Assembly: GCA_963855995.1 (NCBI GenBank)
Contig: OY979728.1
Span: 4,885,330-4,949,329 of the forward strand
DNA: 64,000 nucleotides
Direction: 5' to 3'
Source of the DNA: Muricea muricata
Taxonomy: Eukaryota; Cnidaria; Anthozoa; Malacalcyonacea; Plexauridae
The translations under genes were made by a program, and so were the position numbers. Shown here one piece after another: positions 9,527-54,700 of this stretch (its first letter is position 1; the number at the start of each line of letters is the position of its first letter). Below the pieces are notes generated by a model. The model made no database searches, was not told the origin of the DNA, and saw nothing but the letters and a program-made list of their open reading frames with translations.

Positions 9527-9646
9527 GTTTACGACCATACCACCAGGAAAGCACTGGTTCTCGTCTGATCACCAAAGTTAAGCCTGGTCGGGCGAAGTTA
9601 GTACTTGGATGGGTGACCGCCTGGGAATACTTCGTGTTGTAGACTT
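9527..9646 (+). rRNA. 5S ribosomal RNA
   Basis: The 120-bp sequence runs from GTTTACGACCATACCACC to the end TTGTAGACTT and matches the metazoan 5S pattern. The internal promoter region is clear (AAGTTAAGCCTGGTCGGG, TTAGTACTTGGATGGGTGACC). A TTTTTTCTTTT run follows, as expected for RNA polymerase III termination. It is 120 bp long like its inverted partner at 15370-15489. Position 3 differs from that copy (GTTTAC against GTCTAC). A 5S-derived SINE head is possible, but no SINE body was seen. Confidence 0.85.
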
Positions 9647-10587: not shown

Positions 10588-10784
10588 CTTGGCTCCCTCC
10601 CGGGTAAATGTTGAGGTAAGTTTGAAGCAATGTGTTCACTTCTTTGTTGAAACCCTTCAAGAATGTCTTTCAGAGCCTCAGCATTTTCCGACAACGTTTG
10701 TTGCTCTGTTAAATATTGCTTTAAATCATTTATGATGTCATGATCGACTGCTTCCAATGTACTCACTAAACCTTCTGCATATTC
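10588..10784 (-). pseudogene. Inverted duplicate of SKA1 exon 2
   Basis: The minus-strand frame is nearly the same as SKA1 exon 2 at 14739-14952: the EALKDILEGFQQR and SNLPQHLPGREP stretches are shared. It has lost about five codons before INDLKQ. The acceptor is changed from TTTTTTAG to TTTTTTAC. No neighbouring SKA1 exons lie on this strand, so it is unlikely to be spliced into a product. Confidence 0.75.
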
Positions 10785-11040
10785 GTAAAAAATATTGCAA
10801 GTATTATTGTACAGAGAGCTCGTCTGATCACCTTATCAAAACAAGAGTTTTATCTAACTCATGAGATCATTACCACTTACTATCACTATGGTAAAAACGT
10901 GGCGTCGAAGTGTCGAAGAGTTTCTGTCATATGCTATGAATAGAGACGATCTGCCACAAGAACACCTCCACCTTCTTGGCAAATGATGTCATCCCTCATG
11001 GAATAGAAGCAGCTATGTTGTCACATCAGATCGCCTCTGA

Positions 11041-27400: not shown

Positions 27401-30400
27401 ACCGATCACTGGATCGAGCTTCCCTAAATTCTATTTCATTCCAAGAACAATGATGTATAGTAACTTAATATGCGCTTTACAAAGCCAAAAATGAGCAATC
27501 TGTTCTGGTCTGATGAAAGCAGCATTGAGGCTGTCAGCAATGTTGTTCAACATTGTTACATCTGATTGCAGGCTAGTTCAGGCTCAACAACTTGTTCAAT
27601 ATTGTTGACAACATTGAACAATGTTGGCAGCAAAACATTGTTCAATGCTGTTTTCATCAGGCCAGAACAGGTTGTTCATTTTTGGCTGTGTATCATTTAT
27701 GTCATGTTTGGTCTGCGGTCTTCTTCTCGGGCAAAAGAGACTGCACTTCAAAGCTGATCATTTTGAATTGTTCAGACTCTAAAGTGTTCATCATAACCTT
27801 CTTCTTACCTAGAGGCTGTGCTTTAAAGAACGCCTTGACCCAAGTCTTGCGAAGTTTCGCCAAATCATCGTGATCATGTAAAGGAAATATCTGCTCGATC
27901 ACTTCTTCAACGAGCAGTTTGGGAACTATGATGAAAAAACGTCAAGTAAACAAATGTATAACTCAGTAACTACAAATACCATTTTGCAGCCGACAACGAT
28001 ATCACTGTAAAAGTCAATATGTTCCACTGTATGCCGCAATGTGCGGCTGTTATCAAAACCACGATCATGAATTGCTCTTGATCATCGAGTCCCGTTGTCC
28101 TCCTAAGATCTTAAAAAGTTGTTCGCGAAAATGCCAACCCGTTGCTTAGGCTGCTAGAAAGACTAAGTAACCCTGTAAGAGGTAGTAACCCCGTAATGCA
28201 ATTGTGCAACGGGGTTACTACCTCTAATACAACGTAGCTAAACAAATATAATATGCAATTAATCACATAAGTGTTAAGCCAAACGTTGCTTAGCTTGGGA
28301 CATGTCTAGTGCTCTATGGGAAAAATGATTTAAAGAGTTTGATTTTTGTAAATTTATCTAGTGATGGCTGTTTCTCAAGCTTTAGTTATTAACCCTAGTT
28401 TAATCTGAAAACTATTTATTAATATTGACACTATAACACCAATGTAAATTTATCATCGCAAAATTTTCGATTCGTAAACTCAGATCTTTATCAGTGCTAA
28501 TGCACATATTCAACCAAATATTCAACATGCAAACTTACAAGGAACTTATTTATAAACTGATTCTCGCCTATGATTGTTTTTCATTCCTATCAGTGGAGTG
28601 CCTACAGAAACCATTCAATTTCCACCATACCTATAGTCTGTCCAGGAACAAACTTGATCCCAGCCAACTCATCTCCTTCCACTGCTCTCATATTGTTCAC
28701 CAGCTCCGTTACGATACTCTGCCTATCGCCTGACGTGAAGAACAGTTCGGGATCTTCAATATTCAGAAACTCGTCCTGGTTCTCTACTGTGAACTCGGCC
28801 ATTCCACCGTCTTTTAATTTCTTCCGTAAACCCATCTCCTCCGCTTTCTCCATGAACACTTTGATGGATGACGTCAAAAAGAACCCGTATGCAGGCTTAT
28901 CCGCCATTTGCCGCACGTGGATTTCCACTTCCGGTATGCGTGATCGCAGGCGCGATAATAACCACATGACCACGTAGTCTTCGGTTTTTGGCGGGAATAT
29001 AATGACGACATCGCTCGTCCGCGTGACCGTTGATTTCTGCCATACTTTATTTGCGATCACAAAACGGCCTGCATTTTGCAATTTCTCTGTGAAAGTAGGA
29101 AGATAATTTTAAATCCAATATTTGCAAACCATAGAAAATGGATTTAAGCGGGTCTTTATAGTTGGACATGCTCGGCTCCAAAAAGGGAATTTTTTGTATA
29201 TTATCTTTCTCAAGTTGCACATAACTTAAAACAGTTATCCGTTAACGTCCTTGTTTTGTCATGTATAGTTGTTTATATTTGGTGGGGAGGATTATATACT
29301 TGTTCGGTGTAATTCAAGCTACTGATTAAATTATTTGCAGCGCTGGCCTTATGACAGCAGTGTAGTCCAGTTATCGTCGGTGATTGGAATATATGGTGTT
29401 TTTCAGCAGAAATTCGTGCGTCTCATTACTAAGTTTTTATTTCTCAAAGCTGACTTGCATAAGCCCCCCCCCCCCCGACAGATTAAGAACGCTTTGCACT
29501 TAATACTTTTCCATTAACTATAAACATTTTTGTTAACTATAAATGTTTTTTTGTTTTATACATAATTCAGGTCAAGAAAATTTAGCAGGTTTGTTCATGA
29601 AATGTACAAACTTTTCTTGTATTTTCCATCTATCCACCGTCTGAACTAAGCGCCTTTGATACAAACTCTGCAGTAATGTAAGTAGAACATTTCATTTAGA
29701 AAAATTGGACAGAGCGAAATCTTACTTTTTGTAGACTCTGCTGGTGGTGTGGCCTCTTTGACAACACGCTCTGCAAACAGAGAAAACGTTTATTTTCTGT
29801 TAGCTTTGCTATTACGATTTAAATCTTCCTGGTCTAGCTGGATAGTTATACGCTCATGGACATAAACTTATGCATTCGATTTGACGCACAGAATAGCAAC
29901 TATACTTTATATTGTAATATTTATTTTAAACAGCAAAGATAGTATTTGATTCATTCTGCTTTTTATTGCACACAATGTTTGACCGAGAATTTACCGAGAA
30001 TTCGACTGCCAGAAATTCTTACGAATGTCTGCGTTTTGAGCAAAGACCCACCGTTGGGACTGTTAGCCTTATATTCCTTTTTACAAAACAAATAATAATC
30101 TATATGAATTTAATGTAACCATATTGTTTGTTAATCAAATATTTGGACATTTAAACGAGTTATTTGGCAATTGTATTGCATCTCTTATGAACTTCCTTGT
30201 TTATAACTAAAAGAACTTCAACAAAAGCTTCTTTTATCGGCATTAATTTAAACCTGACTGTTTGGAAAACAATAAACTTGCTGTTGCTTGCATAACCCAG
30301 CCCAACCCGCAAGCATAGCTGAGGGATGCTGTCAAAACTGTCTTAGAATAAAACAAAGCTTCTTTAAATCTCTGAATGAACTTACCTCGCACCGACTTCA

Positions 30401-33700: not shown

Positions 33701-36700
33701 TATACATTACTATATTTTCGACATTTTACAATATTTTACAGCCAAACTTAAAAATTTCACCAAATTTGGAACACTCTTTCCAACTATGCTAAAATTGTTT
33801 TCGAAATTAAAAGTTTGTCTAATTGGGGAATGGTTCAACCACTAATTAGTAGGAAATTACACGGTACGAGAAGTATTAATGAAAAATCACATGCGTGTTT
33901 GGCGAAATGTGTATAATACCGCGAGTGCAAAGCATGAGTGTATTATAAATATTTCGCCGAACACAAGTGTGATTTTTCATCAATACTTTGAGGACAAGTG
34001 TTTTTTCCTATTAATATCATTTTTTAAAAAATGTTTCACCGATTTGTTTATGTTTTTATTTTTTAAAAATCCTGTGCCCGGCGGGGCACTGTGAAAATAT
34101 TCTTAACACTACACAAATGAACATTCATTGTTTGTTTTCTGTGACAGCAAGATAGATGATCCACACAAATGCCATTGCTTACATTCAACTTACATTGTAA
34201 TGCCACATTCATTGATTTGCCATTTAAAACCAGCTGAATGTGTGCGATAATAACATTTTGAGTGATTAAAAATAATGAAATTCACCGTACGATTGGGAGG
34301 TTATATTTGCATGGTTCCATTGAACAATCATGAAAGTGGAAATTTAGATTTCATATCATGTGATCGTAAAAAAGTCATGATAATTTGACGAGGTGTTATG
34401 TTAATAGTGAGTTTTCATTAGAAGTTTTTGAAGTAAACAGTCTTACGTGACTGTGGATATCAGGATGTGTTTAACAAAAGTCTGTTCTGGATAAAAAGCT
34501 TAAAGTTTCTAGATTCTTCACTAATGCTACTGTCATTCACCTCTTCTAATGAGTGTTGTATTTAACAGAGGTCGGAAATTCATGTTTTTTCTACCATCTG
34601 ACCAGAATAGTAAATTTTGAAATTTGCTATTTGCTTTTGGCCAGTCTAAATTTTATCCCAAGTCTTCCTTTTTATATCTTTTAGTGATTTAGTCTGCATT
34701 TTATTCTGAGTCTGCAGTCCATAGTCTGAGTCTGCAGTCCATAGTCTGCAGATTACACTGACCAAATAGCATTTGATGTTGCTGACCTGAATTCAAATGG
34801 CTGGTGTCATGCGCATATGGTATTGGACAATAAGACTCTCGCAGTCAAATAAGTTGATGTATTCTTTTAGGTTGGTCCTGAATCTCAAAGTATTGGAGCA
34901 GTAATATCATCAGATACAAAAATTGTGATTAAAAGTGTCAAAAGATATCAACCAAATTTCCAAAATAAGAAAAACATTTGTTTAGCAGCATATGGAGACA
35001 TTGTGACTGAAATACAAGATCTTTTATCCTTGGTAAACATGCGAGAGAAAATTCATATTGAACGTCCAAATGGTTTGCTCCTGTTAGGACCTCCTGGTGT
35101 TGGCAAGTCATCGTTGGTCTCATATCTTGCAGATTGTTGGGAAGCTGAGTTGTTTGTCCTGAATGGTGCTGATATCTTTGGAGCTCAAATGGGTGAGAGC
35201 GAGAAAAATTTGAGGAAAATATTCGAAGCTGCCAGGTTTGTAACATCATCACAACAGGGGTAGACTACAGCCAGTGTATTGGATAGGGTATATTTTTGAT
35301 ATGGGTATATTTTTGATATGGGTATATTTTTGATATGGGTATACTTCAAGTAAACTGACCATGGACAAATTTTCATATTTGACTGCAGGAGGACCAACTT
35401 GATTTATTTAATATCCTTCATTATAATTTTCTTACTTCTATATGCTTTGTTAAAATTGTATTAAGATTAGCAAAGCAATAAATTATAGTTGCACATAATG
35501 TTATCAACTTTAAAAGCAAACAATGGCTTAAGTAGAGGTAAATAAATATTATAATAGCAGTAGTAATATAGGTACCGATCAACCCTTTTTTTTAGGGCGC
35601 CGCAAGGGTACCGCAGGGCGCCGCAAGCCTCCATAGGGCGCCGCAAGGGTACCGCAGGGCGCCGCAAGCCTCCATAGGGCGCCGCAAGGGTACCGCAGGG
35701 CGCCGCAAGCCTCCATAGGGCGCCGCAAGGGTACCGCAGGGCGCCGCAAGCCTCCATAGGGCGCCGCAAGGGTACCGCAGGGCGCCGCAAGCCTCCATAG
35801 GGCGCCGCAAGGGTACCGCAGGGCGCCGCAAGCCTCCATAGGGCGCCGCAAGGGTACCGCAGGGCGCCGCAAGCCTCCATATAGGGCGCCGCACTAATTA
35901 GTTTGCGAGATTATGATTGGTTGAACCGCATACGTACATACCGTGACGTACACACCGTGACGTACACGCCGTGACGTACGCTATACCCGTGCTCTGATTG
36001 GTTAAAACAGCGTACGTATCCCCCGTGACGTACGCTATAGTCGCGCTCTGATTGGTTAATGGTTGGTGGCATAAACTATATAAATTCGCCGTCGAGTCGA
36101 GCATTCATCAATGTTAGGATTACACTTGGTTTGGTGTCTTTGGTTCAGTCAAAAACCGATTATTATTCAAGACGCTAGAGAAGGAGTGGAACGCCTGATA
36201 AAAGCATTGGAGAATCGTCAGAATACAATGGAGTGTTTACATGGTTTACCAGCATCTTCAACAGTGACGCAAAAGGGCACATTTTGGTTCTGTGGTGAAA
36301 ATCCGAGCTGTGAGTTCTTTTGCCCCGATCAAGATTGCTACATGTTTGGAAAAGCTGTGACGGCCTATCGTGAAAGTGGTTGTGTACATCCAAGGTGTTA
36401 TGGACATGGACGCCTGGCAAAGCTGCGAATGGTTAAAGATAAGAATAACCAGAACTATGGTAGACCGTTCTTTGTGTGTTCCGAAAGAGATAATCCCTGT
36501 TCCTTTTGGCAATGGGGTGATGTGTTCGAAGGTATCAAGCCCATTTGCCGACATGGTCTGATATGTCGCACCAAGAAAGTGAAGAAAGAGGGTCCTAATC
36601 AGGATCGTTTATTCTATTGTTGTCCTCATCCAAGAGAAAGTGCTTGTGACTTCTTTGAGTGGAAACCTGACGAAGACCCCCTTGAGCCAGGTTGTGTTTG

Positions 36701-39700
36701 TCTGTTTAGTATGCCACCATCTTACCGATATACAGTGAGAAAGACCGGGGAGATATTTACTAGCAAGGAAACCGATCGTAAGAAAGCGTATGACGAGTTC
36801 CTTCGCCAAAAGGAAGTCGATGAACTGATTCAGGACTTACAGATCTGCTAATGACTATAACAAAAGTGTAACTGTATATATAATTAAATAAACATTATCT
36901 ACATTTATATCGTGTTATTATGTTGTTGTTGTTCATTCGTGTCGACTTTTCTTTGAGTAAGCATGTCATGTTTAAAGGGTGGGTTGCCCTCTATAAAATT
37001 TAGAAGAATACGTTTCATGTTTGCCTGTTGCTCAGGAAAGATTGTGATTCAACAGTCGGAAATTGATGGCGGAGAAGTACCTCCACGACCTGTATTACAA
37101 CCCCGAAAGTCCGGCGAGTTTTGGCGGGGTGGAGGCTGTTTACCGTGCCGCAAAAGAAGACGGCAAGTTCCAACTATCTCGTAATAAGATAAGGACATGG
37201 TTGAGACAACAAGACACATATACTTTACATAGACCGGTCCGTTACAGATTTAAGAGAAATAGAGTCATTGTCGGGGGTATAGATAAAGAATGGGAAGCCG
37301 ATTTAGTTATTATGGATTCACTAAGCAAAGAAAATAATGGTTTCAAGTATATTTTAACTGTTATTGATGTATTATCTAAGTATGCATGGGTAGAACCCTT
37401 GAAGACAAAGTCCGGGGAAAATTTGGTTAAGGCGTTTGAAAAAATCCTGAAAAAAGGACGGAAACCTGAAAAGTTACATTCCGACAAGGGAACAGAGTTT
37501 ACAAATAGACTGTTTCAAACATTTCTAAAGAAAAAGAAGATTTTTTTCTTCACCACATATAACGAGACCAAAGCGTCAGTGGTTGAACGGTTTAATCGAA
37601 CGCTGAAGGGAAAAATGTGGAAATATTTCACGGCGAATAATACGCTCAAGTATATTGATGTCTTACAGAAATTAGTACGTTCCTATAATCATTCGAGACA
37701 TCGTAGCATTGGAATGCGACCAAGCGATGTCAATCTTCAAAACGAAAGTGTTGTGTGGGAAAGACTGTATGGTGATGAAGCAAATAAGCTTTTTAAGTAC
37801 AAATTTAGCATTGGAGACCAAGTTCGAATAAGTAAAGCAAGACGAACGTTTAAAAAGGGTTACCTACCCAGTTGGACCGAAGAGGTATTCACGATCACAA
37901 AGCGGATACAAAGAAAACCCCCTGTGTATAAAATTGCGGATTATCACGGAGACGAATTAGAAGGGACATTTTATGAACCTGAATTACAGAAAGTTATTAA
38001 GACAGATAGTGACTATTATAGAGTCGAGAGAGTAATTAAATCACGCATGCGTAATAAACAAAAGGAGCATTTTGTCAAGTGGTTAGGTTATCCAGATAGT
38101 TTTAATTCCTGGATACCTGCGAGTAATGTAAAAAGTATTTCAAAATAAACGTATATAACCAATGACATTACGGGTGTTGTGTTCATTTGTCGCTCACTTA
38201 TAGCCATGGCCAGTCAGTTTTACCTTACTCTTCCATCGAACAGTTCTATGGAATATTTTCCAGCCAACACGCTGACAAATTTTAAAACCAAACTAGCTCA
38301 ACCTTTAGAACTGACAGGAGAATGGGAAGTGGCGCTCTCCGAGTTCCAGTACCCTCGTAGCTGGTACAATTTACGTAAAGGTTTCGACAGTCATATTTAC
38401 GCCGATAGTGGTGGTCAGGGTTATTTCTTGACAAGTACTGTCCCGCATGGGTACTACCCAACCGTTAAGGAGTTTGTTTCCGCTGTGAATAAAACGTTAA
38501 AGACTGACGCAAATGGGGATATCTGGCTGACATACAATCAATTAACTCGAAAAATGACTGTACATGTGAGAAACAAGGCGAGGTTGGTTTTGACTGGTCG
38601 GTTTGCAAGTATGGTTGGATTTGATAAAAAAGAATTGGAGATAGCAAAGAATACGGAAGCCCCTTTACCTGTAGATTTAGAGGCTGGATTTCATGCCATG
38701 TATTTGTACACGGATATTGTTGAGCCACAGTTAGTGGGTGATAGTAAAGTTTCCTTGCTCAAAGTTGTCAAGTGCAGTGGCGAGTTTGGGGATAATGTAA
38801 GCGTAAATTTTCCGAATCTTCAATACGTCCCAGTGAATGTAAAGTCGTTTGAGACGGTGGAGATAGATATAAAGGATGATACACAGGGAAAAGTACCATT
38901 TGAGTTTGGGAAGGTGATCGTAACACTTCATTTCAGGCAGAGGAGATCTCCTTTATTCATATAACTATGAGGCATACGTATATACCCGACGCAAACGAAT
39001 GTAAAGTGTATTACTTGAGAAGTCAAAATGGTGGGGGCCTACGTGGTTTCCATGGAGCTAGGATACAGCGGGGGTATGGGCTTGGTAGTTTTTTCAAGAG
39101 TATTGCTCGTGTTGCCATACCTTTGGTCAAGAAAGGTGTAAACGCGCTCGGTAAAAAAGCAATAAAAACAGCCGTGAATGTTGGTCAAGACGTACTAGAA
39201 GGAAAAAGCGTAAAACAAGCAGTCGCAAGCAGAGGACGGCAAGCTGTGAATGATCTAGCAAAACAGGGTGTGGATAATATCAAACGCCAAATTGGGGGAG
39301 GTTCTAAGAGCACAAATCAGTCCGGACCCTCAAAACGTTTAAATACTAATTCTCGAAAGAAAGTCGTCACTTCCACTCGAGCAAGTAAACGGAGAACATC
39401 ACCACTCGATACACAAGAAAATATTTTTGATAGTCAACCTACTAAAAAATGGCGCAAGCAGTAAATGTCCTTCATAAAGATTCATGTGGATGTGGAAAAT
39501 CAGAACTCGAATTATTTACAGTACCACCTACACAAATTGAAATGAACAAGGGGTTTTGGGAAAGTGTTGATCCTGTTGCAAGCGTTCAAACTTCTGACAC
39601 TATTGAATTCCTTTGTGCCGCTAACCCCGACGTCTACACAGACCTGGCAAACAGCTACCTTCACGTGAAAGCAAAAATAACAAAGGCAAATGGTGCCGAT

Positions 39701-42700
39701 CTGGATGCCGACGAGCAAGTAGGCCCCGTGAACCTGTGGATGCACGCATTATTTTCTCAAGTTGACGTTTTCTTAAACAATAAACTTGTTACACCTTCAA
39801 GCACGGCATATCCGTACAGAGCGTACATAGAAACCATATTAAATTTTAGTAAAGATACCAAATCGTCGCAGCTTACATCCGCGTTGTTTTACAAAGACAA
39901 AGCCGGGAAAATGGACTCTGTAAATCCTGTGGCAAATGCCGATGCTGTGAATACCGGACTAAAGGAGCGCTATAATCTTTCTAAGGAAAGCAAAATGGTT
40001 TCCATGGAGGGAAAAATTCATTCTGATCTTTTTGCCCAAGAACGTTACATTTTGGGTGGGGTTCCTATTAAGCTCAAGCTTGTGCGAACAAGTCCTGCCT
40101 TTTCTTTGGTATCTTCAGCCGACCCAGCCGCCTACAAAGTTGTGATAGAAGATTGTATCTTCCGTGTACGCAGGGTCAATGTTTCTTCTACCGTCATGAT
40201 CGGTCATACAGAAGCCCTCAATCATACCACAGCCAAGTACCCCATCAACAGGGTTGAATGCAAAGTGTTTTCCGCCCCAAGAGGGAACTACTCTGGAAAC
40301 CAACCCAATATCTTTCAGGGTCAATTACCTGATAGAATTGTCATTGGTATGGTTGATTCCACGGCCTTCAACGGATCTTTTAAGAAGAATCCATTCAATT
40401 TTAAAAACTACGATATGACCTATCTTGGATTAACTGTAAATGGGGAACATTTACCTAGCAAACCACTACAGATGAAATTTGGTGATGCAGGAGGTGCCAA
40501 CTATGTATCGGCATTCCAGACATTGTTTGCCGGTTCAAACAAGTTGTTTCAGAACGAAGGAAATGGCATCACGCGTGACGAGTACGCCAACGGCTACACA
40601 TTGTTCGTGTTTGATCTGACAGCTGATCTTTGCGCCAGAGATCATCTGCAACCTATTAAAAATGGTAATGTCTCACTGGAAGTTCAGTTTGGTACAGCTC
40701 TTAACCTGGCTATAAATATCATGGTGCTCGGAGAGTTTCAAAACCTTATTGAGATCGACGCTAACCGCAACGTGCTCTGTGATTTTAACAGTTAAAATGA
40801 ACACCCTTCAAATTTTAAACGTGCTTCAAAGTGATCCATTCACCAAATCGGTTTTTACGAGTGTACTACCGTCGGATCGACTACCTGACACTATATCAGA
40901 AAAGCCCAAGGGATTTGTTGTAAATGTCGATGGTAGTGATGGCCCCGGCACGCACTGGGTAGCTATTTACCTGGCAGCTGATGGATTTGGAGAGTTTATG
41001 GATTCTTACGGACAAAGACCTACCTACTACAGCGAACACTTTAAAACGTTTTTAGAAAACAATAGCAGTACTTATATTTATAATAAACATGTCTTACAGT
41101 CGCCATGGTCTAATGTGTGCGGCCAGTACTGCTTGTTTTATGCATTACATAGGTGTAGAAATATACCCATGTCAACTATTACTAATATGTTCACGAATGA
41201 TAAGGAATGGAACGATACGCTTGTAAGGGATTTTATATGTAAATGGTTTTTTGTGCAATAAATGTATTAAAAGACAAACAAGTTATTTCAGTTTCATAAA
41301 TTTATTCATTTCATACGTTATACACTATTTAAACCATTTGTATGGTCGTCCAGCTTGTTGAGCCCGCCGTTTTCTAGCTTTAGGCTTAATCCCCAGCAAA
41401 GGTGCTGTAGCAACGCTACTAGCTTCTTCTAGTTCGGGTTGGTGTAGTGCCCCGATTTTATAATCTCGTATTGTTTTTAAGCGGTTCTCATTCCTAACAA
41501 TTCCTTCTGGGATATTAACATCACTCAAGGCTTTTGCGAAAAGTCTCCATCCTTGAGGATTAAAATTCTTCCGGTGACGTAGCACATCGTTAACAAGATC
41601 TATCACATTACTCCCCGGTACAGGTTTACCCTCGTATACCAGCTGGGCTTTGTCGTCCCATGTAATCAAATCTTTATTTTCCTTTAATTTCTTGACCAGT
41701 TGTCGGGCTCTAGTTTTCATCGTAGGAGGGACACTTTCTAGAATATCAGTTTCGATATTGTCGGGTAGATCAACAGGTTCTGGTTGTGTTTCCGGCTTCT
41801 CTGTAGTCGGTTTAGAGGGTACTACACTTACTCGAACCGGCTGACTCATTCTCTTATCATAATAATTCAAGTAGCGTTGAAGAATTTGACTATATAGTCT
41901 AGCTTTTTCATCTTGAGTGATGTCTTGTCTCTTAAGTAAACTATCCATTTCCGAATCTAAATGATTCACTTGAGAGGTCAAAGGTGGAACCAATGGCTTA
42001 CTTTGTGTTGTATTCTCTACCATATGCTCTGGCATGAGGACTAACCGCTTCACGTGTTCCATTATTGAGTCAAAAGACTAGCCAATTGTTCAACTATCGG
42101 TGTAAGGATTAATGACAAAAAACCTTCGCCCTTTTGTAAAAGCACTTCTCTTCGCTGGTTCAAAGGGTTCCGATTGTCAGCGACAAAACGTAAATCTTCT
42201 TTTAATGGGGTTAATCGTTTCAACACACTGGGATTAACTTTAATCGTTTTTAAATAAACGTTCATGCAGCACTCTGTCAACGCCTCTAGCAGATCGTCGT
42301 GTGCGACTTCAAGTATCGCCTTTCGTTGAGCCGGAGTACACTTTCGTAACACTTTTAAAAAGTCAGAGTTCCTTCTAAGACGAGTCGACATGACTAAATG
42401 AAACTTGTTGCGATGAAACAAATTGTTTTATGTTCGCGGTACATAAACGTAGTGTTTGTCGTTCGGAAATATGCCAGACCTTAAGCGCGTTTCATCCGGA
42501 CATGTGGGTGTTAGGTCAATAAATAAATATGAAAATGGTTCAGCTGTCGCCATTTGATATGCTTGTTGAAAATATTTGACGTTGTTGGGGTAAATTTGCT
42601 TAGCTAAATGAATAACCTGACTTGCATCTCTGACGTTCTTTGTTAACACAATATAACTGGCGTTTAATGAAATGGTGCGGTGATCTTTACTCTGATGAAA

Positions 42701-45700
42701 TAGGTTTTGAACTATGTAAATCACGCTGAGATTCCCGTGATGAGACTTTTTTGTAAATAATTTCGCAATCACCGAATCTTGCTCCCCCATCATATCATCA
42801 AATATATAAAGATTTCGCGTCTTGGGGTTGATACTGTCGAATATTACATCTGGTACACCTTCAATAAACTCAATGTTCGGAACTAATGATTTTATCTCAG
42901 CAAATGTATCCTGGTACTCGGAATAAAAATATTTAATGTTCTCAGGTGGTGGGCCAATCATCACTTGAACGTTGCCTAACAATTTCTTGACAAACGTTGT
43001 TTTGCCAGTTTTTGTACCGCCTGAGACAAGGAGGCCAAAGGGATGTGTTAGTTGTAACGAATACATGACTAAACTGAGCAACGTAAGTTTGCAAAAACGT
43101 TATATATACCATTTCATATTCTATCGCTTTGATGTATTTTCATAAGTTCGTTTAAAATGCGATCCAACGGGAGAATTTTCGCTTGCCTTAAATAATATTG
43201 TCTGTCTTTTGTCGACAAGTGATGATAATCTGCCAAATGATTAGAAAGTTTTAACAAGCCTTGCTTCCCACACAGGGGACAGTCTTCACGCAAACGCGGC
43301 ATGATACAAACTAAAAGTATTGAACTTAAACATATAACTAAATATTGTTAAACATAAAACTAAATACTGTTTTGTAAAAGTCCCGTGGAGGGACAAATTG
43401 TGTCCCGCAAGTCCCGCAAAGTGATATTAGGTTTTGCAAAAGTCCCGTGGAGGGACACAAAGTCCCGTGGAGGGACACAAAGTCCCGTGGAGGGACAAAT
43501 TAAGTCCCGCGAGTCCCGTTTCAGCAAAACAAACCGATGCCCGCTCACGAACTCGATTCTATTATTGTCCAAAACCACATATATCGTGTTATATGATCCC
43601 CCGTGTGGTCAACATTATCAATAAGTTTAATCGCCTAGGGGTAAAGTAAATAAGACACAGATGGTAATAACACGCACATATGTTAGTTGTTGAAAAGATA
43701 TATTCACAAAATAGCTATTTACAGATCTAATGGAATGGTTGAAACACCATCCTCCAAAACTTTACGCTTTGGATAAAAGTAACTAAAAGCGTTTTTAACT
43801 TGAACATATGTACACATCTTATTGTTCATAACTCTAAATCCTCTATTTACACCCGACCCACTACGTTTACTCAAAATTACATCTAAATACTTATCTTTAT
43901 TAATAACATTATTCTTTTTGTTAACCCCTTTGCAACTAAATTTGTCTTTCCCAGCCCCAAAACAATAATACGTTTTACTACATAAACTAATTATCCCATC
44001 CCCTTCCCACTCTACTTTAAATAATCCCGGCGTTCTCTTATCATACTTAGCATGCTCTACCGTGTCTGTTCGAGGAAACCAATTACATTTATCGTTTTCA
44101 AATTCATGCATCATTTCAGGTTTAACTAAATCTTCCAGACTCTCACCACTTATAGCAATATAGGCGCTGTCCGTATCCATCTCACAATACTCAAAATCGG
44201 ACCTATCTACATATTTATCTAAAAAGTCATAATAAAATTGCAACATACGTAATTTGGCGTATTGGTACACAAAGAAGCCAACTTGAAGAGGCAAGTCCAG
44301 TTTAATTTTTTTCTTGCTGCTTTGGACTTCGTAGGTATCATCATCAATGGGGTTCAGTTCGCGGAAGAATGGGGAGTTTATTAGGTTAGGTACTTCGTCG
44401 TCGTCGCAGAATTTAACCTGTCGATGTCGTTCTTTGTTAGTAATGGTTTTCCCATAGGATGAATTGCCCACGAGTTTCATTGTGTCCGCAATAATGGCTT
44501 TCGAAGGGTCGGCGTCCCCAGCGCGGCGGGCATTAGACACAGCATCACCGAATGGTTTAAAACATGGTTTAGGGCTATACTCTATCACTTGATAGACACG
44601 CGTTACCTCTAAACCATGCTCCAAATACCACTTTAAGAGAGGAGTAGCCAACAGAATTTTTTCACCTATCATACTGCCGATTAGACTTCGTCTTGGTCGC
44701 TTCATGATGTCATTCTCCTCGGCGTACACTTTCATGAATTCACCGATATCGTCTCGAGATATCTCAGTGTTTTTAAATATCGGGCACATCTCAGAAAAAT
44801 GTTCACGTAAAGGTTCCGGAACGTGAATGTCACACTCGATGCAACCAAATAATGTTTCATTTTTCACAGCGCCGAGAATAGTCTGAAGTGTCATCGTTTT
44901 TACTTTATCCAAGGGCCGTCGAAGTCGAGTAGCAATGAACCGTTGCAAGTCCTTGTTTGTTTTTTTCATATCTCGCCATTCGCATTCCCAACACTCGACG
45001 AGGTTGAAACCTTGCTTGTGGATATACGAGCTGTTTCTCCGCGTCTCCTGGAGCAACTCTTTCATGGGTTTATCTCGCGTGGTATTAACCTCTTTCCCAG
45101 CATTTAGGTGGCAATCATGCCCATGCCAATAACAACCTAATAAGAGAAAACTGAAAATTAACAATTTGCGACAAACATGTGCTACACTATCTATTTAGAT
45201 TGCTGGCGGTCCCATGGTATCTTTATATAATTAATTGAGGTGTCCACAAGTATTGTATCCCACGCAAACGCATTAAATCACTCCCACGCAATACAGCTAT
45301 TAATGTTAAAACGTGGGCTTACCGTGAAATTGATACACAGTCTGCGTCTCCGAACAGAATCCATCGACTGGAAGGCGACGAGCTCCAACTCTTTTCTCGG
45401 TATTGTTGTACCCATGTCTGATCTTTACCTGTTGTTGGTGGGCTTGCCATTCCAACCACTCGATCGCCATTTTACCGCTCCATTGCTTTTTAAAACCGCC
45501 GCTTTCCAGTCGTCGCGTATACTGTCCGGTTGGCATATCTTGCATGATCGCCCAGAGGTATAGCGCATTGGCGTCGTAACCGACCACTTTCTTGCATGGT
45601 TTAGGCTCTAGATTCTTTCGTGTCATTTCTGCGTTGCGTATAAAAGTTTTGTCTGTTTCGTGGTATCTGTTAAATATTATACTTGGGCCACCGACGTTAT

Positions 45701-48700
45701 TGTCTTTCATGGTATAGTATAAGTCTTTGTCTTTTTCGGTAAATAGCGAGAAATGCACGTTTGGAACGTTCGAGAATAGATATTTCATCGTCAAACCCGG
45801 CACACTCACACCGTCCTTAAAGATGTCTATATCCCGCTCCTTCCAAAACTCGCTCATCTTGTCAATAGCCTCGAGGAAGGGAACGACATCAAGATTATTA
45901 TACCAAACCAGAAAGTCACGAAACGTTTCCATATTGTTATCGTCCCACACGCGCTGGCAGTACTCGTATTGTTCCTCGGAAATGCCGGTGTTGGAAAGCG
46001 TTGAATGGAAGGCTTCAGGGGGCGGTAAGGTGGAAAAGTTCAATTTCTCCAGGGAGTCGACCCATTCGTATGGAAAGTATCCCTTCGTCTGCGTACACTC
46101 GTAGGCTTTGAGGAACTGGTCGTAGGAGAATCCGGGAGCCAAGTAGTTTGTGATATCGAGAAACTTCAAGTGCATTGTCTTAAGACACATATGATTGTTG
46201 TTTCTCTTTATCACAAACTTAACTTGCTCATGTTTCACGAGGTGGGCAAAGAAAGGGTTCTTGGCAGCGTTGATATCATACTTTCCGGAATTGAAGCCAA
46301 GGACAGGTAGTTCCATAAGGTAGAGCTCGAGTTTTTCTTGCAATTTTTCTAATGGGTGAACCTTTGTATTTTCTTCCCCACTTTCCTCATCCTCACTCGC
46401 CTGAAAAAAACGGAGGAAAAAATAATTAGAATAAATACTACACATATATCACAAGCCCGGAAAGATAAGTAAACCATGACTAGAATTTTAAACCTCTAAA
46501 ATTATTTACCTCATGCACTTCGTCCTCGCTTGTTTGACTAGCGTCCGCTTCATCTTGGGTCTCCTGCAAAAATAAGAAAGAGTAATAAGGATAAAGACTA
46601 CACAGATCTAGTTGACCAACAATATGGTCTATACCTGATTCAATGTGAGAAGACATTGCACCATTTCTTCCAACCATTTGTCCTCGCTACTTCCATTACA
46701 TACCTAAACACAGATATAATAAGTACAAGTCTCGAAAACACCTAGGTGGTCAAACACACAACATACCTCACTGTTTGCTATCCGTTGACTGATTTGGTCG
46801 AATACATCAGAGAAACGGTCCAACAATAGCGAATAGCTTTCCTGACTAATTTCCACCAAATAGTCGATAAATTGTTTGAGCATTTCTCTTGTATTACCCG
46901 AGGACACAAAACACTTTGGTTCATCATAGCCAGGAACATTGGAGCACACAGAGACACTCAAGGGGACATGTTCAGCTTCCCATGTCAGCTTTGCTGTGTT
47001 TCTCGGGTGCTGATCTTCTCTTTTGAAGTAACACTCAAAGTCGAATGTCGCGCGATATGGAAAGTATTTTAATTCTTCAGGAATCACGATTCCTTCATCT
47101 TCCAGTAAGTCAAAAATGGTTTGTGGTACTTTATATGCGCCACCAGGGAACACGTGCCGTACAGTCGCTTCGCAGGTTTTCTCGTGCCTGTTAAGCGCCC
47201 TCGCTGTTTTCCATAACTTGTCGCATTTCGAGCAACAGTACGTCTTTGAATACATTTTAAGGTTTTTGATATAACTGAAGTGACTTCCATAGAGATTGAG
47301 ATACATGCTGTTAGCATAATTACGGTGAGATCTTTGAATGAGTTGAGCTACAATATCCGTCTTGTCATTATCCTCATCCTCATATTCCACAAGTCGGTAT
47401 ACATAAATATTCAATTCAAATAATTTCTCCAAGTCTGGAAGTTCTTCGAGTGTAACTCCATCAAAATCCTCAAAATCGTCAGCGTAGCGTTCAAAATAAT
47501 GCTGCGTGTCGCGTTCCAAATTGTGTGCGTGACAACCACGGTGTAGAGCCAAACAACGGAAAAAACACAGTTTGTCCTCATATGGTAAACCAGTCTGTTC
47601 GTTACAGTCTAATGAAACAACAGCGGGATTCTCCAACACGTATTTGGGTAAGCGAGTACCACGGCCAATAGGGTGATCGCGAAGTTTTGTCACGTAGAAT
47701 GTAGCGTTTGTAATATCCACCACAACCCATTTAGAGTTGGGGCGTTGTTGTCGAGCCCATTCAAACACATCCAAGTTCTCCAACGCCAAACGTACTTGTT
47801 GCAAATCTTCACGACTGCGAATCAGAAAGGGTGCCTCAAACACACGATTGTTATTTGCAGAGGAATGATGATACTGCATTTGTTCCGTATCGTTATTAAA
47901 CAGTACAAAGCCAAAAGAAAGGTTAAGTTTAAACACTGTAGTCTGGTCTTGGAATATACGTTCGACATCACCAACAAGTTCCCCCATATTCAACGAGTTT
48001 AAGCGGTAATTGTACCAATCTTGCACTCGGTTGCCACGACTTTGTCTTGTCCGGATGGTGCGCCAGTTGTCTCGATGAAGTGTAGACGGTACATCAGCTG
48101 GTGGGTAGACGGGATCTTGAGGAAATGGATTGGACGTCGAAGCCCCTAGATAAAAAAAGAACATTGTTTTTAAACATCTGCGATTCGCAAAATTGATATA
48201 AACTACACCCGATGTTGAAGTTCCTAGGAAGAGAAATAGTTGAATAATATCAATTTTTATGCTCACCATCATTTACTCTCGCTCGTTTCGCTTGGGTCGA
48301 TGTAGTTCCAGTTGCCTTGCGCTTATGACCACTAACTTGACCGTCCGATGCCCCTACAGGATAAAAGTTTCAAATTTCAAGTCTCGATCATTTGTTTAAT
48401 TATAGCTGACACAACTTACCTTCGCTTACTCTTGCTCGTTTTGGTCGGGTTGTTGTTGTAGGGTCTGTTCTCTTCCGCTTCCCACCACCGACTTGATGTT
48501 TATCTCGTTGATGAGCTTGTAGCGGAAATATATTCCGAAACACCTCGCCACAAATGTTACATGTATATTCACGTTCGGCTCCCCGCCGCTCGTGTACCTT
48601 TAGATGGTCATTGAGCTTATCCTTGAAAATAGAAAATAATCCACGTTAGCAAACTCAAGTTCAAACAAATACCTTACACCAGCTTTGACTCTAGAACAAA

Positions 48701-51700
48701 ACTGCAACTAGAGCATACCTTTCGGCTAAATTTCTTATGACACCTCTGACACTCGAAGTTTTTTTCTTCATGGATTTTTTCATGGCGTCTCAACATATTA
48801 CTAGACGCAAAATCTTTATCACACAAACCACACGTGAATGGACGGTCGCTCGAATGAACTCTTTGAATATGTCGTTTCAAATCATGCGAGCGCGTGAACA
48901 CTTTATTACATTGGTCGCACTTATAACCAGACTTTTTTGGTTCATTTTGCCAGTCGTTCCATTCCGCTAGAACTTGTTCTTGAATCTCTGGCGACCATGA
49001 CTCAAACATATCGTCCACCGCCAACGCACACAGTTCACGATTCAACTCCTCATTCTCCAGCTCTTCCATAAACTGATCTCTCCTAAAACATAAAACTAAC
49101 TTCATAAGACTGCTTTAAATCCAAAATTTAATACAACATATCAACTTACCAGATATTTTCTTGATGTTGTTGGGCCATATCTTCAAACTTCTCAAAAGGA
49201 ACAGCTGTTGTAGCCTCTTGGACAAGAATAGATCCGCGAGTTAACCAAAGAGATCAAACCAAGTGTAATCCTAACATTAATGTATGCTCGACTCGACGGC
49301 GAATTTATATAGTTTTATGCCACCAACCATTAGCCAATCAGAGCGCGACTATAGCGTACGTCACGGGGCATACGTACGCTGTTTTAACCAATCAGAGCAT
49401 AGCTATGGCGTACGTCACGGGGTGTACGTCACGGGGCATACGTACGCTGTTTTAACCAATCAGAGCATAGCTATGGCGTACGTCACGGGGCGTACGTCAC
49501 GGGGTGTACGTCACGCTGTTTGACCAATCAGAGCATAGCTAACGTACGCTGTTTTAACCAATCAGAACGCGGCTATGGTGTACGTCACGGGGGATACGTA
49601 CGCTGTTTTAACCAATCAGAGCACGGGTATAGCGTACGTCACGGCGTGTACGTCACGGTGTGTACGTCACGGTATGTACGTATGCGGTTCAACCAATCAT
49701 AATCTCGCAAACTAATTAGTGCGGCGCCCTATATGGAGGCTTGCGGCGCCCTGCGGTACCCTTGCGGCGCCCTATGGAGGCTTGCGGCGCCCTGCGGTAC
49801 CCTTGCGGCGCCCTATGGAGGCTTGCGGCGCCCTGCGGTACCCTTGCGGCGCCCTATGGAGGCTTGCGGCGCCCTGCGGTACCCTTGCGGCGCCCTAAAA
49901 AAAAGGGTTGATCGGTACCTATATTACTACTAATAGCTTTATATAGCTGAACAATAAACCAGTGAGTAGAATTAAGAAATCAATGGGTGATTATTAACTT
50001 CAGAGTGTTGAGCTGCTCTTTAATGTTTAAGCTCAAGTAATTTGAGCCACAGTGCATGTTAACCACAAATGACTACAAATTTATGTTGTCTAACATTTGA
50101 TTACTTAATATCTGCATATCTGTGAATGTTCAAAGTATGTTTGATTGTATGGCGAGTACGTTTGATTATTGCAAAGCTTTTCAATTTGTGAGCTTATGGA
50201 CTGAAAGCTCTTTACATCTTGCTTCTGCAAAATTATAGTGATTGAAATAGATTTTATTGCAATTGCTTCAACTTCAGGACTAGCCTTCCCCCCCCCCCCC
50301 CCCTCGAAAATCTTTCTACTGATACGAAATGATTCTCAAATTATCAATTGCTAAAAGGTGAATCTACCTAATAGACTAGTATAATCTTGAGTGCAAATCA
50401 TGCACACATGATAGGACTACTTAGCAGTAAGAAAATATTCATTGTCATCTATAGGTCTTCCAGGACTATACTGTATGGAGAAAGATTAGACATTTTTTAA
50501 ACTTTAACTTACAATCTTTTATTACAATTTGTCAGATAATTGTTTTAGTCTTTATCTATTTCCAAATTTGCCTGTTTAGAGAAACGTCAAAGCGCATAAC
50601 AAGTGTCTTGTTTATTGATGAAATTGATGCATTATGTTCTAAACGATCACAAGGAAATGATGTTGAAAACAGAGTTACATCTCAGTTATTAACACTGATT
50701 GATGAGATGGTTGAACAATCCAGTGTTATATTGATTGCAGCGACCAACAGACCCAACTCTCTTGATTATGCTGTCAGAAGACCTGGAAGATTTGACAAGG
50801 AGGTTTGTATAAAAATATAGTTTCATTAAACAAAAGAATGCAGGAATTGATCTCCCCCCAATTTTTAGGAACAGGCTTAGCTACCCCCTGTAAAAAAATC
50901 ACCTGGTGTAATTTTAGTTTGCCCGGCGTGGTTTTAATCACGTGAATATTGTGTTGGACAATGTGTTAGAATGTTAGATTGGTTTTAAGTACAGTGTAAT
51001 TGAAGCTGTAAATTCTGTATTTTAAATAAAAATTCCATTACTATAATCAATATCTAATTAATTACAACTGATGCTTGTTGTTTTAAGTTCTTTGTAAATT
51101 TTTAAATTGTTTATGAAACGAAATTTTCTCTCACATTGCATTGGAAAGATCAGTTAAAATCACTGTTTAAATTCTTTGATAGAATTTTTGTAACTGTTAC
51201 TTTTTGAGATATTCAAGTTTATTTTATTTGTACATATCAGTAATTACTTTAAAAAAAGCTTCATTAATTTGAAAAATACTGTACTCAAGCAACACTAAAG
51301 TACCCTGGCCTAGATGGGAAACATATAGCCTGCACACATGTATGTGCAATTTCAGCTATTTTTTTCATTATTACATATATTGTATAAAAAAAGCAATATA
51401 ACAAACACTCACTGCACTGTATGACGTCGGTGGTTGTGTTATTTGCATATCCATCTCTGCGATAACTCAACAAAATGTTGGACGAAATTTCTTTTTATAA
51501 ACACTTTAAATCTTTGGAAAAAGGTGTAAAATTGGCCAAGTTTTGTCTATAACAAAAGCAAACTCCAAATTAAGTACCTAAAACGCCGGAAATGACATTT
51601 CAAAGGTTCTCGTTTTCGAAATTTCCCAGTGATTGCCCCCCCCTTGTGCCCTCTATATCCCCCCACTGCAAACTTTTTGTTCATTCCTATGCCCACGCTC

Positions 51701-54700
51701 CAAACTATAATTAAATTCAAAGGCTTTTTCATACAAGTTGGTAAATGATCATATTCAGTATATAATTTTTATACTCATGCAGTATTCCAAACTTTAAATT
51801 TTTTTTCAGTTTGTTATAGGTGTGCCAAGTTATGAGCAAAGATTAGAAATTTTGAAAAGTTTGACTATGAATCTTCCTCTATCATCAGATGTTGATTTAG
51901 AATTACTTGCCAAACAATGCCTTGGATATGTTGCTGCTGACCTAACAGCTCTCGTACGACAATCTACTCTAAATGCCTTGTCAAACACTATGGAAAGAAG
52001 TAATACAGGTATATGGACCTTTCCCCTCTTGGACAAACTTTTCAAGTCGTTAAATTTAATAGCACAGTTGAAAACAGCATTCTTAATTTAGTAAAAATGT
52101 GGAAAATGGAGTTTGCAGATTTTGTGTTACGCGCAGAAAAGGCTCATTATATTGCAACGTAGTGGTTAGACATTTCCACACGTAAAAAAAAACATAGAAA
52201 ATTCGAAAATTTCATAAGACTATATTTTCCACATTTTATAGTACTTCGCAACTAAGCTTCACAATGAAATTATGAAATAATTATGAATATATGAAATTTG
52301 GGATGTTCTTTCCAGCTGTGCTAATATATTTTCACAATTCAAAAGTTTGTCTATTAGGGGTATGGTCTATTAATATGACCGTTTGGGCATGTTTTTAAGC
52401 CTTAAAATTCCTGTTCAGAAATGCATGCTAATTTTATATTTAAATAGAAAGAAAACTTGATATCACAATGTCAGATTTTCAAAAGTCGTTCAGCACCATT
52501 GTTCCATCTACTTACCGAGGTGTGGACGGCATTGTTGAATCTGCCGCAGTGAAATGGGAAGATATTGCAGGATATAACGATGTCAAACAATCTCTCAGAC
52601 AGGTATATAATCATGGAGCTATATTTTCACTATGTAATTTCACCTTGGTGCAATTTTATGTAATTGATACACCTTGTAATTTCAATTTCATCTTGGTGCA
52701 ATTTTGTATAATTGATTACATCTTGTAATTTCAATGTCATCTTGGTGCAATTTTACATAACTTTGAATGATAATGAATGTATTTTGTCACAGTCACACCA
52801 GATGTTTTGATGCCATAAAAATATCACTTTTTGTCTGTAATAACATTCACTTAAAAATTAGATTCATGTTAATCTGACACTCGGAAAACAACGAAAAATT
52901 TTATGTCTCGAGCGAAGTTTGAACTCGCATCTTCGGGTCTCTGAGGGTCTGTTTACCTGGAAGTAGGGTGAGGGTGACCCTAGCAGAAGGGTTACCCTAG
53001 CAAGCAAGTTACCCTACTACAATATGTTTTATTAAACCGCAGCTCTACCAATCGAGCCAACTTGGAATAGCAGGGGTCTTTTCAAATTTAAATGCACGAA
53101 ATGTTTCCGTGACGACTTAAAACTTGTCTTTGCATGAGGATGCACTGATTAGTTTTTCGTATCTCTGAGGATGGTTCTAAAATATTCTTTTAAACCTGCA
53201 CAGTAAGATTTTATTCCACATATAAATTATGCTAGTCTTATCCGTAACAATACTCTATCGACGTCTGTTGGTTGCAAATGGCTGACCGGAAAAAAGACAA
53301 AATTGTATCCTTTTTGTTTTTAGGCTGTAGAGTGGCCATTTCTCTACCCGGAGTCGTTTTCACGGCTTGGATTATCTCGACCACGAGGGATATTGCTGTA
53401 TGGACCTCCGGGATGTTCTAAGACCACGCTAGTACGGGCTGCTGCCACATCCTGCCATTGTACCTTCTTATCCCTCAGTTGTGCCCAGTTGTACTCACCT
53501 TACGTAGGCGACGCTGAAAGACTTATCAGAGAGGTTAGTTTGTAGGACCATGAGTCTAAACTATGCGTTGATCTGAGCCCATGCACACATCAATGTCAGC
53601 GGTATTACCCATGACCAGTAGCCCCGTAGCCTACACAGCAAAAAACGCACAACCTGTTCTGACCTGATGAAAACAGCATTGAACAATGTTGTGCTGCCCA
53701 CATTGTTCAAGGTTGTCAACAATATTGTTCAACATTGTTACACCTGACTGCAGGCTAATTCAGGCTCATCAGCTTGTTCAGTATTGTTGACAACCTTGAA
53801 CAATGTGGGCAGCAAAACATTGTTCAATCCTGTTTTCATCAGGCCAGAACAGGTTGTGCATTTTTTGCTGTGTAGGTGGAATATTAAGGTCAATGGTAAT
53901 GTACTGTAAGAAAACCGTTAGACCTTTAACGTTCGACCACGTCCTTTAACAACATAGAAATGATAGGACATACTCTCGCATGCCCTTTGAACTCCACCAT
54001 ATTAACTTTTCCCCTCGTGCAACGAGCTCTTAACCGCGCGAATTTTTTTGCCTTGAGAGATTGGGACGAGATAAAAATGTATTCGAAACCTGCCATTTTC
54101 TGAAGACAAAATTGTTACTGAGAAAATATTTAAATACGTAATCTATGACTATTTTTATGTTTAAAACTCAAGGTGTATAAAATAATTTGTTTCTTGCAGG
54201 TATTTACCAAAGCTCGAGCTGCAGCTCCTGCCATCTTATTTCTTGACGAAGTCGACGCAGTTGTGAGAAAGAGAAGCACGGATGGAAGTAGTGGAGTTGA
54301 AGCGAGAATATTATCAACTTTATTGAATGAAATTGACGGCGTTGGAATATCAAGTAATGTTTACGAAACATTGCACAGCAGTAGGTGGGGACATGTTGAT
54401 GATTGTTTTATGCATCTAAGGTGAACTGTGCTCGGTAAACACGGGAAACAAGTCGTAACAAACCTGCAAACAAGTTGTAACAAATCTGTTCACAAGATGT
54501 GTTCGCACTTGTAACAAGCTTGATGGGGCTATCAGACTTGTCACAAGCTTGTATACAATGTGATATAACAATGTTGTTACCTTGTGTTGCCCACTTTGTG
54601 TTGCCATTTTTGTGTTGCCAACGTTGTGGCAATCAGGGCCGTGGCTAGAGCGTTAATTGGGGGGGGGGGTGTATATTCATATATTCGTGTTATGACCAAC

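What the first reader, a model, noticed from the sequence alone, without database searches (positions are those of the whole stretch)
35553..49937. Complete Polinton with perfect 6-bp target duplication inside a housekeeping gene intron
Both ends, the AATAGC duplication, near-identical long terminal repeats and eleven intact genes are all visible. The element lies between AFG2B exons 2 and 3, where the two exons still join in phase (AG|A codon). Intact genes and a perfect duplication suggest a recent insertion or a still active element. AFG2B must splice across about 15.3 kb that includes leftward and rightward viral-type genes with their own polyadenylation signals.
Basis: partly seen in the sequence, partly recalled or inferred. 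Interest (0 to 1): 0.88.

Follow-up and report, generated by a model that had tools for sequence, protein, structure and literature searches.

The report
Intact coral Polinton with spliced polymerase
A complete virus-like mobile element (a Polinton) sits inside an intron of a housekeeping gene, probably of a soft coral or a near relative, and its polymerase gene looks split by introns, which published descriptions of such elements say they lack.

Summary
A 14,373-bp element (35559-49931) is flanked by AATAGC on both sides. It lies between two AFG2B exons that join in phase; the intron is 15,344 bp, 965 bp without the insert. It is a Polinton/Maverick: AGTAGT...ACTACT ends, 575/677-bp terminal repeats with 3 mismatches in 452 aligned bases, integrase, double-jelly-roll capsid protein and polymerase B, in the gene order published for vertebrate Mavericks. 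Best named capsid relatives are octocoral.

One part changes. Polymerase B is not one intact ORF: about seven GT-AG intervals, chosen by eye, cut it. At the best tested one, 59 of 65 relatives covering both sides are contiguous within one residue, and copies carrying it fall in one clade (100/99). A spliced gene is more likely than a decayed one. Two papers describe such elements as intronless. A NEIL3-like GRF zinc-finger gene is a second departure.

Splicing, activity and an empty allele were not tested; the genome search did not complete.

The parts
35553..35558 (.). left target-site duplication AATAGC
49932..49937 (.). right target-site duplication AATAGC
35559..36133 (+). left terminal inverted repeat (575 bp), begins AGTAGT; 7 copies of a 41-bp unit, CCAAT/TGACGT motifs, TATATAAA; ends just inside the first ORF
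49255..49931 (-). right terminal inverted repeat (677 bp), ends ACTACT; 4 copies of the 41-bp unit, longer CCAAT/TGACGT array, same TATATAAA
36111..36851 (+). GRF zinc-finger protein, 246 aa (NEIL3-like tandem GRF); accessory gene
   Evidence: Pfam PF06839 E 3.8e-21; solved chain 7jl5, Endonuclease 8-like 3, E 9.7e-18
37066..38148 (+). integrase: rve core plus C-terminal chromodomain; D85, D146, E180 (numbering of P0129; taken as the catalytic triad from recall)
38206..38964 (+). putative minor capsid (penton) protein, by position only
   Evidence: no Pfam hit; position matches published order
38967..39464 (+). 165-aa protein in the position of PW
39449..40795 (+). major capsid protein, double jelly-roll, 448 aa
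   Evidence: two listed homologs named capsid protein or major capsid protein; predicted fold matches PBCV-1, Sputnik and mavirus capsids
40797..41261 (+). cysteine protease (PRO), weak sequence match
   Evidence: chain named Cysteine protease S273R, E 0.0014; no Pfam hit for the ORF
41325..42062 (-). 245-aa protein in the position of PZ
42062..42391 (-). small protein in the position of PM
42428..43066 (-). A32-like packaging ATPase
   Evidence: Pfam Pox_A32 19.7 bits, below its cut-off of 22.8; P-loop GGTKTGKTT in the translation
43719..45136 (-). polymerase B, last exon (includes part of a Vsr-like stretch, KLVGNSSYGKT and DTDS)
45137..45322 (-). intron i7 (186 bp, ACG|GTAAGC ... TTATTAG|GT); the best tested
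45323..46400 (-). polymerase B, middle exon
   Evidence: Pfam DNA_pol_B_2 E 6.1e-6, 25.8 bits = cut-off
46401..46509 (-). candidate intron i6 (109 bp)
46564..46634 (-). candidate intron i5 (71 bp)
46704..46766 (-). candidate intron i4 (63 bp; acceptor less pyrimidine-rich)
46767..48145 (-). polymerase B, N-terminal exon (5' limit 48145 or 48223 depending on the acceptor of i3)
48224..48266 (-). candidate intron i3 (43 bp; with another acceptor 48146-48266, 121 bp); the weakest
48354..48419 (-). candidate intron i2 (66 bp)
48622..48718 (-). intron i1 (97 bp), interrupts a C2H2 finger
48719..49105 (-). first exon: two complete C2H2 fingers and part of a third
34871..35235 (+). AFG2B exon 2 (host), Walker A
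50580..50802 (+). AFG2B exon 3 (host), Walker B

Best explanation
A complete, probably young Polinton of an anthozoan (probably octocoral) lineage, inserted by its own retrovirus-type integrase into an AFG2B intron. Shown: ends, duplication, terminal repeats, gene content and order, in-phase host exons. Inferred: (1) integrase joins the ends of linear double-stranded DNA to a 6-bp staggered cut; (2) protein-primed polymerase B copies the DNA from the terminal repeats; (3) capsid proteins, protease and ATPase build and fill particles. Each terminal repeat carries the same promoter-like block (CCAAT and TGACGT motifs, TATATAAA, then ATG), so I infer two inward transcription units with near-identical promoters, meeting near 41.26-41.31 kb. 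The polymerase unit carries about seven short GT-AG intervals and most likely needs host splicing; i7 is strongly supported, i1 well, the others by signal and phase only. I infer that i7 was gained within this lineage. The first rightward gene makes a NEIL3-type tandem GRF protein, which I infer binds the single strands or forks of strand-displacement replication.
For: TSD and ends, TIR alignment, domains, MCP fold, gene order equal to the published two inward modules (section read). i7: of 65 homologs that match both neighbouring pieces, 59 are contiguous within one residue, 4 are offset by 2, 1 by 5, and 1 (P0159) lacks the stretch. P0137 and P0140 carry residues nearly the same as the translated 3' end of the window's interval; P0136 carries other, unrelated residues in place of the read-through sequence. 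These and the window lie in one clade of 8 rows (100/99) against 29 read-through rows; 5 of the 38 rows are in neither group. i1 rebuilds a C-x2-C-x12-H-x3-H finger. GRF; binding of single-stranded and forked DNA by NEIL3 GRF fingers from a passage of PMC9266487.
Against: No RNA data: no interval is shown to be spliced. The GT and AG sites were picked by eye, so their being canonical is not independent evidence; i3 and i5 are without a stop in one frame each. i2-i6 have no homolog test except that homology to one gene model (P0166) ends 4 residues before i4 and resumes 9 after i6. Fold search of the polymerase last piece: no hit at E 0.001 or better; best polymerase E 1.4; its own sequence has no Pfam hit. 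ATPase is under its Pfam cut-off, PRO weak, minor capsid protein by position only. Host is inferred from named relatives of element proteins: Paramuricea 71%, Dendronephthya 70%, Porites 53% for MCP, Paramuricea for GRF; but among the 120 listed polymerase hits no named one is octocoral (best named: Oculina patagonica, 66%).
Confidence: 0.85

Rival explanations
1. The polymerase gene is decaying: the ORF breaks are stop codons and small insertions, and the element is an immobile fossil.
For: The ORF listing breaks polymerase B into pieces. PMC8097293 reports 96% of vertebrate Maverick loci eroded, in some hosts with fragmented polymerase genes (passages).
Against: i7 falls exactly where relatives are contiguous and is shared within one clade. 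Clusters at 100, 85 and 78% identity have the same 448-aa downstream ORF. i1 rebuilds a zinc finger. The nine other genes are uninterrupted and the terminal repeats differ at 3 of 452 aligned bases.
Confidence: 0.1
2. The zinc-finger plus basic stretch (48267-49105) is a separate regulator gene, not the start of polymerase B.
For: PMC11071296 mentions zinc-finger regulator genes in some adintoviruses (passage). Interval i2 could simply be retained and end the protein.
Against: Exons 2 and 3 both end in phase 1 and have no stop before their donors (read). The tail of exon 2 with i2 and exon 3 with i3 are alike (local alignment score 32.5; best of 300 single-base shuffles 23.5). The polymerase ORF begins inside intron-like sequence.
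Confidence: 0.3
3. Assembly chimera: a free viral or separate genomic copy misjoined into AFG2B.
For: Junction reads could not be inspected; the own-genome search did not complete (13 identical requests).
Against: A perfect 6-bp duplication abutting exact element ends on both sides, and the same host gene continuing in phase on both sides.
Confidence: 0.03

Closest known systems
Vertebrate Mavericks/Polintons (PMC8097293)
   Same: 6-bp duplication, (AGT)2//(ACT)2 ends, TIR length inside the reported 46-1,447 bp, size inside 12,723-24,620 bp, two modules pointing inward in the order pPolB-ATP-PM-PZ and INT-mCP-PW-MCP-PRO (section read)
   Different: [quoted passage not shown] here polymerase B appears to have about seven. 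A GRF protein lies in the left accessory position.
Adintoviruses / Polintoviricetes (named in passages of PMC9952930 and PMC11071296)
   Same: same kind of gene set by recall (integrase, polymerase B, double jelly-roll capsid); zinc-finger genes in some members; a MELD-virus protein (E 6.6e-18) and a protein named penton capsid protein of an adintovirus (E 1.3e-16) are among the capsid's fold matches
   Different: the adintovirus paper is not held, so no gene-by-gene comparison; no relative confirmed in IMG/VR in 4 scans, which may leave out records near the window's genome
NEIL3 tandem GRF zinc fingers
   Same: residues 93-189 match solved chains named Endonuclease 8-like 3, E 9.7e-18 and 1.7e-15
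   Different: free-standing small protein; no glycosylase domain found by Pfam; encoded by a mobile element
Vsr mismatch endonuclease
   Same: profile of the polymerase last piece and relatives matches three Vsr chains, E 1.7e-5 to 2.3e-5; HGCxWHGHxC block
   Different: lies inside polymerase B; activity unknown

Membership tests
Polinton/Maverick | 6-bp target-site duplication | tested here: met
   AATAGC both sides
Polinton/Maverick | long terminal inverted repeats with AG.. ends | tested here: met
   575/677 bp, AGTAGT...ACTACT
Polinton/Maverick | retrovirus-type integrase | tested here: met
   rve E 5.3e-14 and Chromo E 6.9e-11
Polinton/Maverick | protein-primed polymerase B | tested here: met
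   DNA_pol_B_2 exactly at its cut-off (25.8 bits) on the middle piece; the last piece itself has no Pfam hit but 14 of 36 aligned sequences do; several homologs named DNA-directed DNA polymerase. Protein priming itself not tested
Polinton/Maverick | double jelly-roll major capsid protein | tested here: met
   model pLDDT 79.1; 215 PDB matches at E <= 0.001, the 50 listed all viral capsid entries, led by PBCV-1 and Sputnik
Polinton/Maverick | A32/FtsK-type packaging ATPase | tested here: inconclusive
   Pox_A32 19.7 bits against cut-off 22.8; P-loop present
Polinton/Maverick | adenovirus-type cysteine protease | tested here: inconclusive
   S273R E 0.0014; no Pfam hit
Polinton/Maverick | minor capsid (penton) protein | tested here: inconclusive
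   position only
Polinton/Maverick | mobility or particle formation | not testable with these tools
   needs experiment
Intact vertebrate Mavericks as described in PMC8097293 | intronless genes (a reported regularity of that subgroup, not a definition of Polintons) | tested here: not met
   polymerase B is interrupted by about seven intron-like intervals; splicing not confirmed by RNA
Intact vertebrate Mavericks as described in PMC8097293 | two inward-facing gene modules in fixed order | tested here: met
   mCP, PW, PM and PZ matched by place only
AFG2B host gene | best match to AFG2B among AAA ATPases, exons in phase across the insert | tested here: met
   margin over VCP-like chains is small

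The most novel reading that the evidence does not exclude
A lineage of octocoral Polintons has become a spliced nuclear DNA virus. It gained several spliceosomal introns in its polymerase B (i7 once, at the base of one clade), so replication depends on host splicing. It also captured a NEIL3-type tandem GRF module that serves as its single-stranded-DNA or fork-binding protein, the role that DBP plays for adenoviruses. Surveys with intronless gene finders would fragment or miss such elements.
Probability: 0.35. Interest if true: 0.7.

Novelty: new variant of a known kind. Interest (0 to 1): 0.5.

Why it matters
Polinton remains in introns are known (a human ZBTB20 intron, PMC9004415, passage), so the insertion by itself is ordinary. 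The split polymerase is not: a protist survey says that endogenous viruses 'do not contain introns', with one exception treated apart, and used a prokaryotic and viral gene finder (PMC10120064, passage), and intact vertebrate Mavericks were reported without introns. If spliced, these elements must be transcribed and processed in the nucleus, and intact animal copies may have been counted as broken. The GRF protein is a testable candidate for a replication part.

Tried and rejected
Own-genome search for other copies: the same genome search was sent 13 times and each time the machine was busy; nothing was learned. IMG/VR: 4 scans, 0 confirmed relatives. Within the window no second copy: the left terminal repeat and 13 ORF translations found nothing at E 0.001 in the 35,552-base and 14,063-base flanks. 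Fold search of the polymerase last piece: no confident match (model pLDDT 81.3, pTM 0.66), perhaps because only an exon piece was folded. NCBIfam (8 proteins): integrase similar to IS481, IS3 and IS30 transposases below their cut-offs, a weak Vsr match, one irrelevant weak match.

Considered and rejected: decayed polymerase, assembly chimera. The separate zinc-finger gene is kept as a rival. Controls by shuffling used single-base shuffles, which are lenient for repeated sequence.

Literature: 9 searches, of which I saw the listings. In the lists shown I noticed no report of spliceosomal introns in Polinton genes or of a GRF protein in a Polinton (term absent from all 15 papers listed, of 151). 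Group I self-splicing introns are reported in some protist Polinton-like viruses (PMC12220804, passages). The founding Polinton paper and the adintovirus paper are not held, so earlier mention cannot be excluded. PMC8097293: passages and one section. PMC10120064, PMC12220804, PMC11071296, PMC11071308, PMC9952930, PMC12721341, PMC9004415, PMC9266487: passages only.

Recalled, from no call: the role of adenovirus DBP, strand displacement in protein-primed replication, the catalytic triad and Vsr motif readings, the origin of S273R.
Full report
OBSERVATION. The element ends are exact. On the left AATAGC is followed by AGTAGTAATATAGG; on the right CCTATATTACTACT is followed by AATAGC. The element is 35559-49931, 14,373 bp. 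Terminal repeats of 575 bp (left) and 677 bp (right) align with 449 identical columns, 3 mismatches and three length differences: 123 bp, 224 bp and 1 bp. The 123 bp equal three copies of a 41-bp unit (7 exact copies left, 4 right). The 224 bp are extra copies of a CCAAT/TGACGT module on the right. The three mismatches all lie inward of both long gaps, in the inner part of the repeat.

HOST GENE. AFG2B exons 2 and 3 join as GCT GCC AG|A GAA. The joined reading of exons 2-4 has chains named AFG2B as its two best solved-structure matches, E 9.1e-89 and 1.1e-88, ahead of VCP-like chains (best 5.5e-87) and AFG2A (1.3e-77). The margin over VCP is small, so the AFG2B name rests on best hit. Without the insert and one duplication copy the intron is 965 bp.

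WHAT IT IS. Rightward: GRF zinc-finger protein, integrase with chromodomain, putative minor capsid protein, a PW-position protein, major capsid protein, protease. Leftward: polymerase B, ATPase, a PM-position and a PZ-position protein. This is the order published for vertebrate Mavericks, with the GRF gene in an accessory position; AGTAGT/ACTACT is that paper's most common end motif (PMC8097293, section read). The capsid protein has no Pfam hit, but its model (pLDDT 79.1, pTM 0.82) matches double jelly-roll capsids: PBCV-1 E 3.2e-15, Sputnik 5.4e-15, mavirus 1.6e-13. 2,112 proteins match it at E <= 0.001 among 5,354 candidates, the 120 best being listed; the best named are from the octocorals Paramuricea clavata (71%) and Dendronephthya gigantea (70%), then the stony coral Porites (53%). 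Against this, none of the named hits among the 120 listed for the polymerase piece is octocoral; the best named is Oculina patagonica, 66% (that search admits only proteins of limited length). I infer an octocoral or near host.

THE POLYMERASE. Polymerase B is spread over ORFs 43719-45164, 45306-46445 and 46704-48272. Reading the gaps by eye gives GT...AG intervals: i1 97 bp, i2 66, i3 43 or 121, i4 63, i5 71, i6 109, i7 186. Donors read AAG|GTATGC, AAG|GTAAGT, ATG|GTGAGC, GAG|GTATGT, CAG|GTATAG, GAG|GTAAAT and ACG|GTAAGC; acceptors are mostly pyrimidine-rich, that of i4 least so. Since I looked for such sites, finding them is not by itself a test. i3 and i5 lack a stop in one frame each; i3 at 43 bp is the weakest.

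TEST OF i7. The middle and last pieces were compared, apart, with all 373 proteins then held. 65 homologs match both (the window's own three pieces were dropped). In 59 the two matches are contiguous within one residue; four are offset by 2 and one by 5; in P0159 the stretch is missing. Relatives such as P0139 and P0141 read VYQFHG-CYWHGHDC without a break. P0137 and P0140 instead carry LLIFSFLFLG or LLIFCFLLLG before CYWHGHDC, almost as the 3' end of the window's interval reads (LLIFSFLLLG); P0136 has unrelated residues there, and I counted it as carrying an interval by judgement. I put 37 of the 119 other listed homologs, my choice, and the window into a tree of 38 rows: 29 read through; 4 show the interval (window, P0136, P0137, P0140); 4 start downstream and say nothing; P0173 reads through with only 31 upstream residues and was left ungrouped. 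The 4 interval rows and the 4 silent rows form one clade, 100/99; without P0136 the other three still lie in a starred set of 5 (100/98). The simplest account is one gain of i7. The root is for drawing only, so gain rather than loss rests on the wide read-through set.

TEST OF i1 AND THE REST. Across i1 the sequence makes C-x2-C-x12-H-x3-H; exon 1 alone has two complete fingers and exon 2 alone one. i4-i6 lie in an acidic linker: homology to P0166, one gene model, stops 4 residues before i4 and resumes 9 after i6, and P0166 has an acidic stretch of about 93 residues between. Exon 2's tail with i2 and exon 3 with i3 are alike and both have basic KRKR/KRAR-type stretches, so i2 and i3 may come from an exon duplication.

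WHY NOT DECAY. The other nine genes are uninterrupted, though for the small ones no reference length was available, and the terminal repeats are near-identical. Clusters at 100%, 85% and 78% identity share the same 448-aa downstream ORF. Random decay would not be expected to place a break at a shared splice-like site. RNA proof is missing.

GRF PROTEIN. Residues 93-189 match a solved chain named Endonuclease 8-like 3 (E 9.7e-18). 189 relatives were found among 269 candidates, 120 listed; the two listed ones with a gene name are endonuclease 8-like 3 of Paramuricea. By eye, three of the 120 share an exact longest-contig length with listed capsid relatives (18,664; 15,821; 11,036), which suggests, without proving, the same short contigs. 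[quoted passage not shown] Protein-primed replication displaces single strands (recalled), so such a role is a fair guess, about 0.4.

TRANSCRIPTION. Both repeats carry TATATAAA at matching places, with 3 (left) and 7 (right) CCAAT-type motifs and 4 and 10 TGACGT-type motifs; means of 500 single-base shuffles are 0.77 and 1.18, and 0.27 and 0.34. These motifs sit in repeated units, so their number is not independent evidence. Both repeats then carry ATG TTA GGA TTA CAC TTG GTT. On the left this opens the GRF ORF; on the right it is a seven-codon frame before the zinc-finger exon. AATAAA stands at + 36887 after the GRF gene, at + 41257 and at - 41306, among 42 AATAAA/ATTAAA hexamers on both strands of the element. 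AFG2B is read in the same direction as the rightward unit, so those signals could truncate it; no data bear on that.

OPEN POINTS. Activity, copy number in this genome, an empty allele and splicing are untested. The rightward ORFs from integrase to protease are spaced by 57, 2, -16 and 1 bases, and how the downstream ones are translated is unknown.

VERDICT. The finding is correct as an observation and ordinary as an insertion. The probably spliced polymerase and the GRF gene make it a new variant of a known kind, interest 0.5.

Noticed in passing
43719-45136 and 45323-46400 (-): Polymerase B carries a Vsr-endonuclease-like stretch: the profile of 36 sequences matches three Vsr chains, E 1.7e-5 to 2.3e-5; 6 of 36 members match Pfam Vsr at E 0.01 or better, best 0.0015. 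Interval i7 cuts the conserved HGCxWHGHxC block.
   Followed up: partly
43377-43518: Repeats of AAAGTCCCGTGGAGGGACA, able to form hairpins (DNA fold z -2.84, 1 of 200 shuffles as stable), between ATPase and polymerase B.
   Followed up: partly
37066-41261 (+): Five ORFs packed with almost no spacing; how the downstream ones are expressed is unexplained.
   Followed up: no
27528-27692, 53710-53874, 61670-61834: A short host repeat, about 91-93% identical between copies, also matching in inverted orientation; perhaps a small non-autonomous transposon.
   Followed up: no
9498-11080 and 14397-15518: Inverted pair of host repeats, pieces 80-84% alike.
   Followed up: no
62862-63254 (-): ORF matching reprolysin-type metalloproteases, Pfam E 7.7e-15, with AHEFGHNFG.
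   Followed up: no
17683-18075 (+): ORF matching SKA1 (spindle and kinetochore protein), Pfam E 1.6e-10.
   Followed up: no
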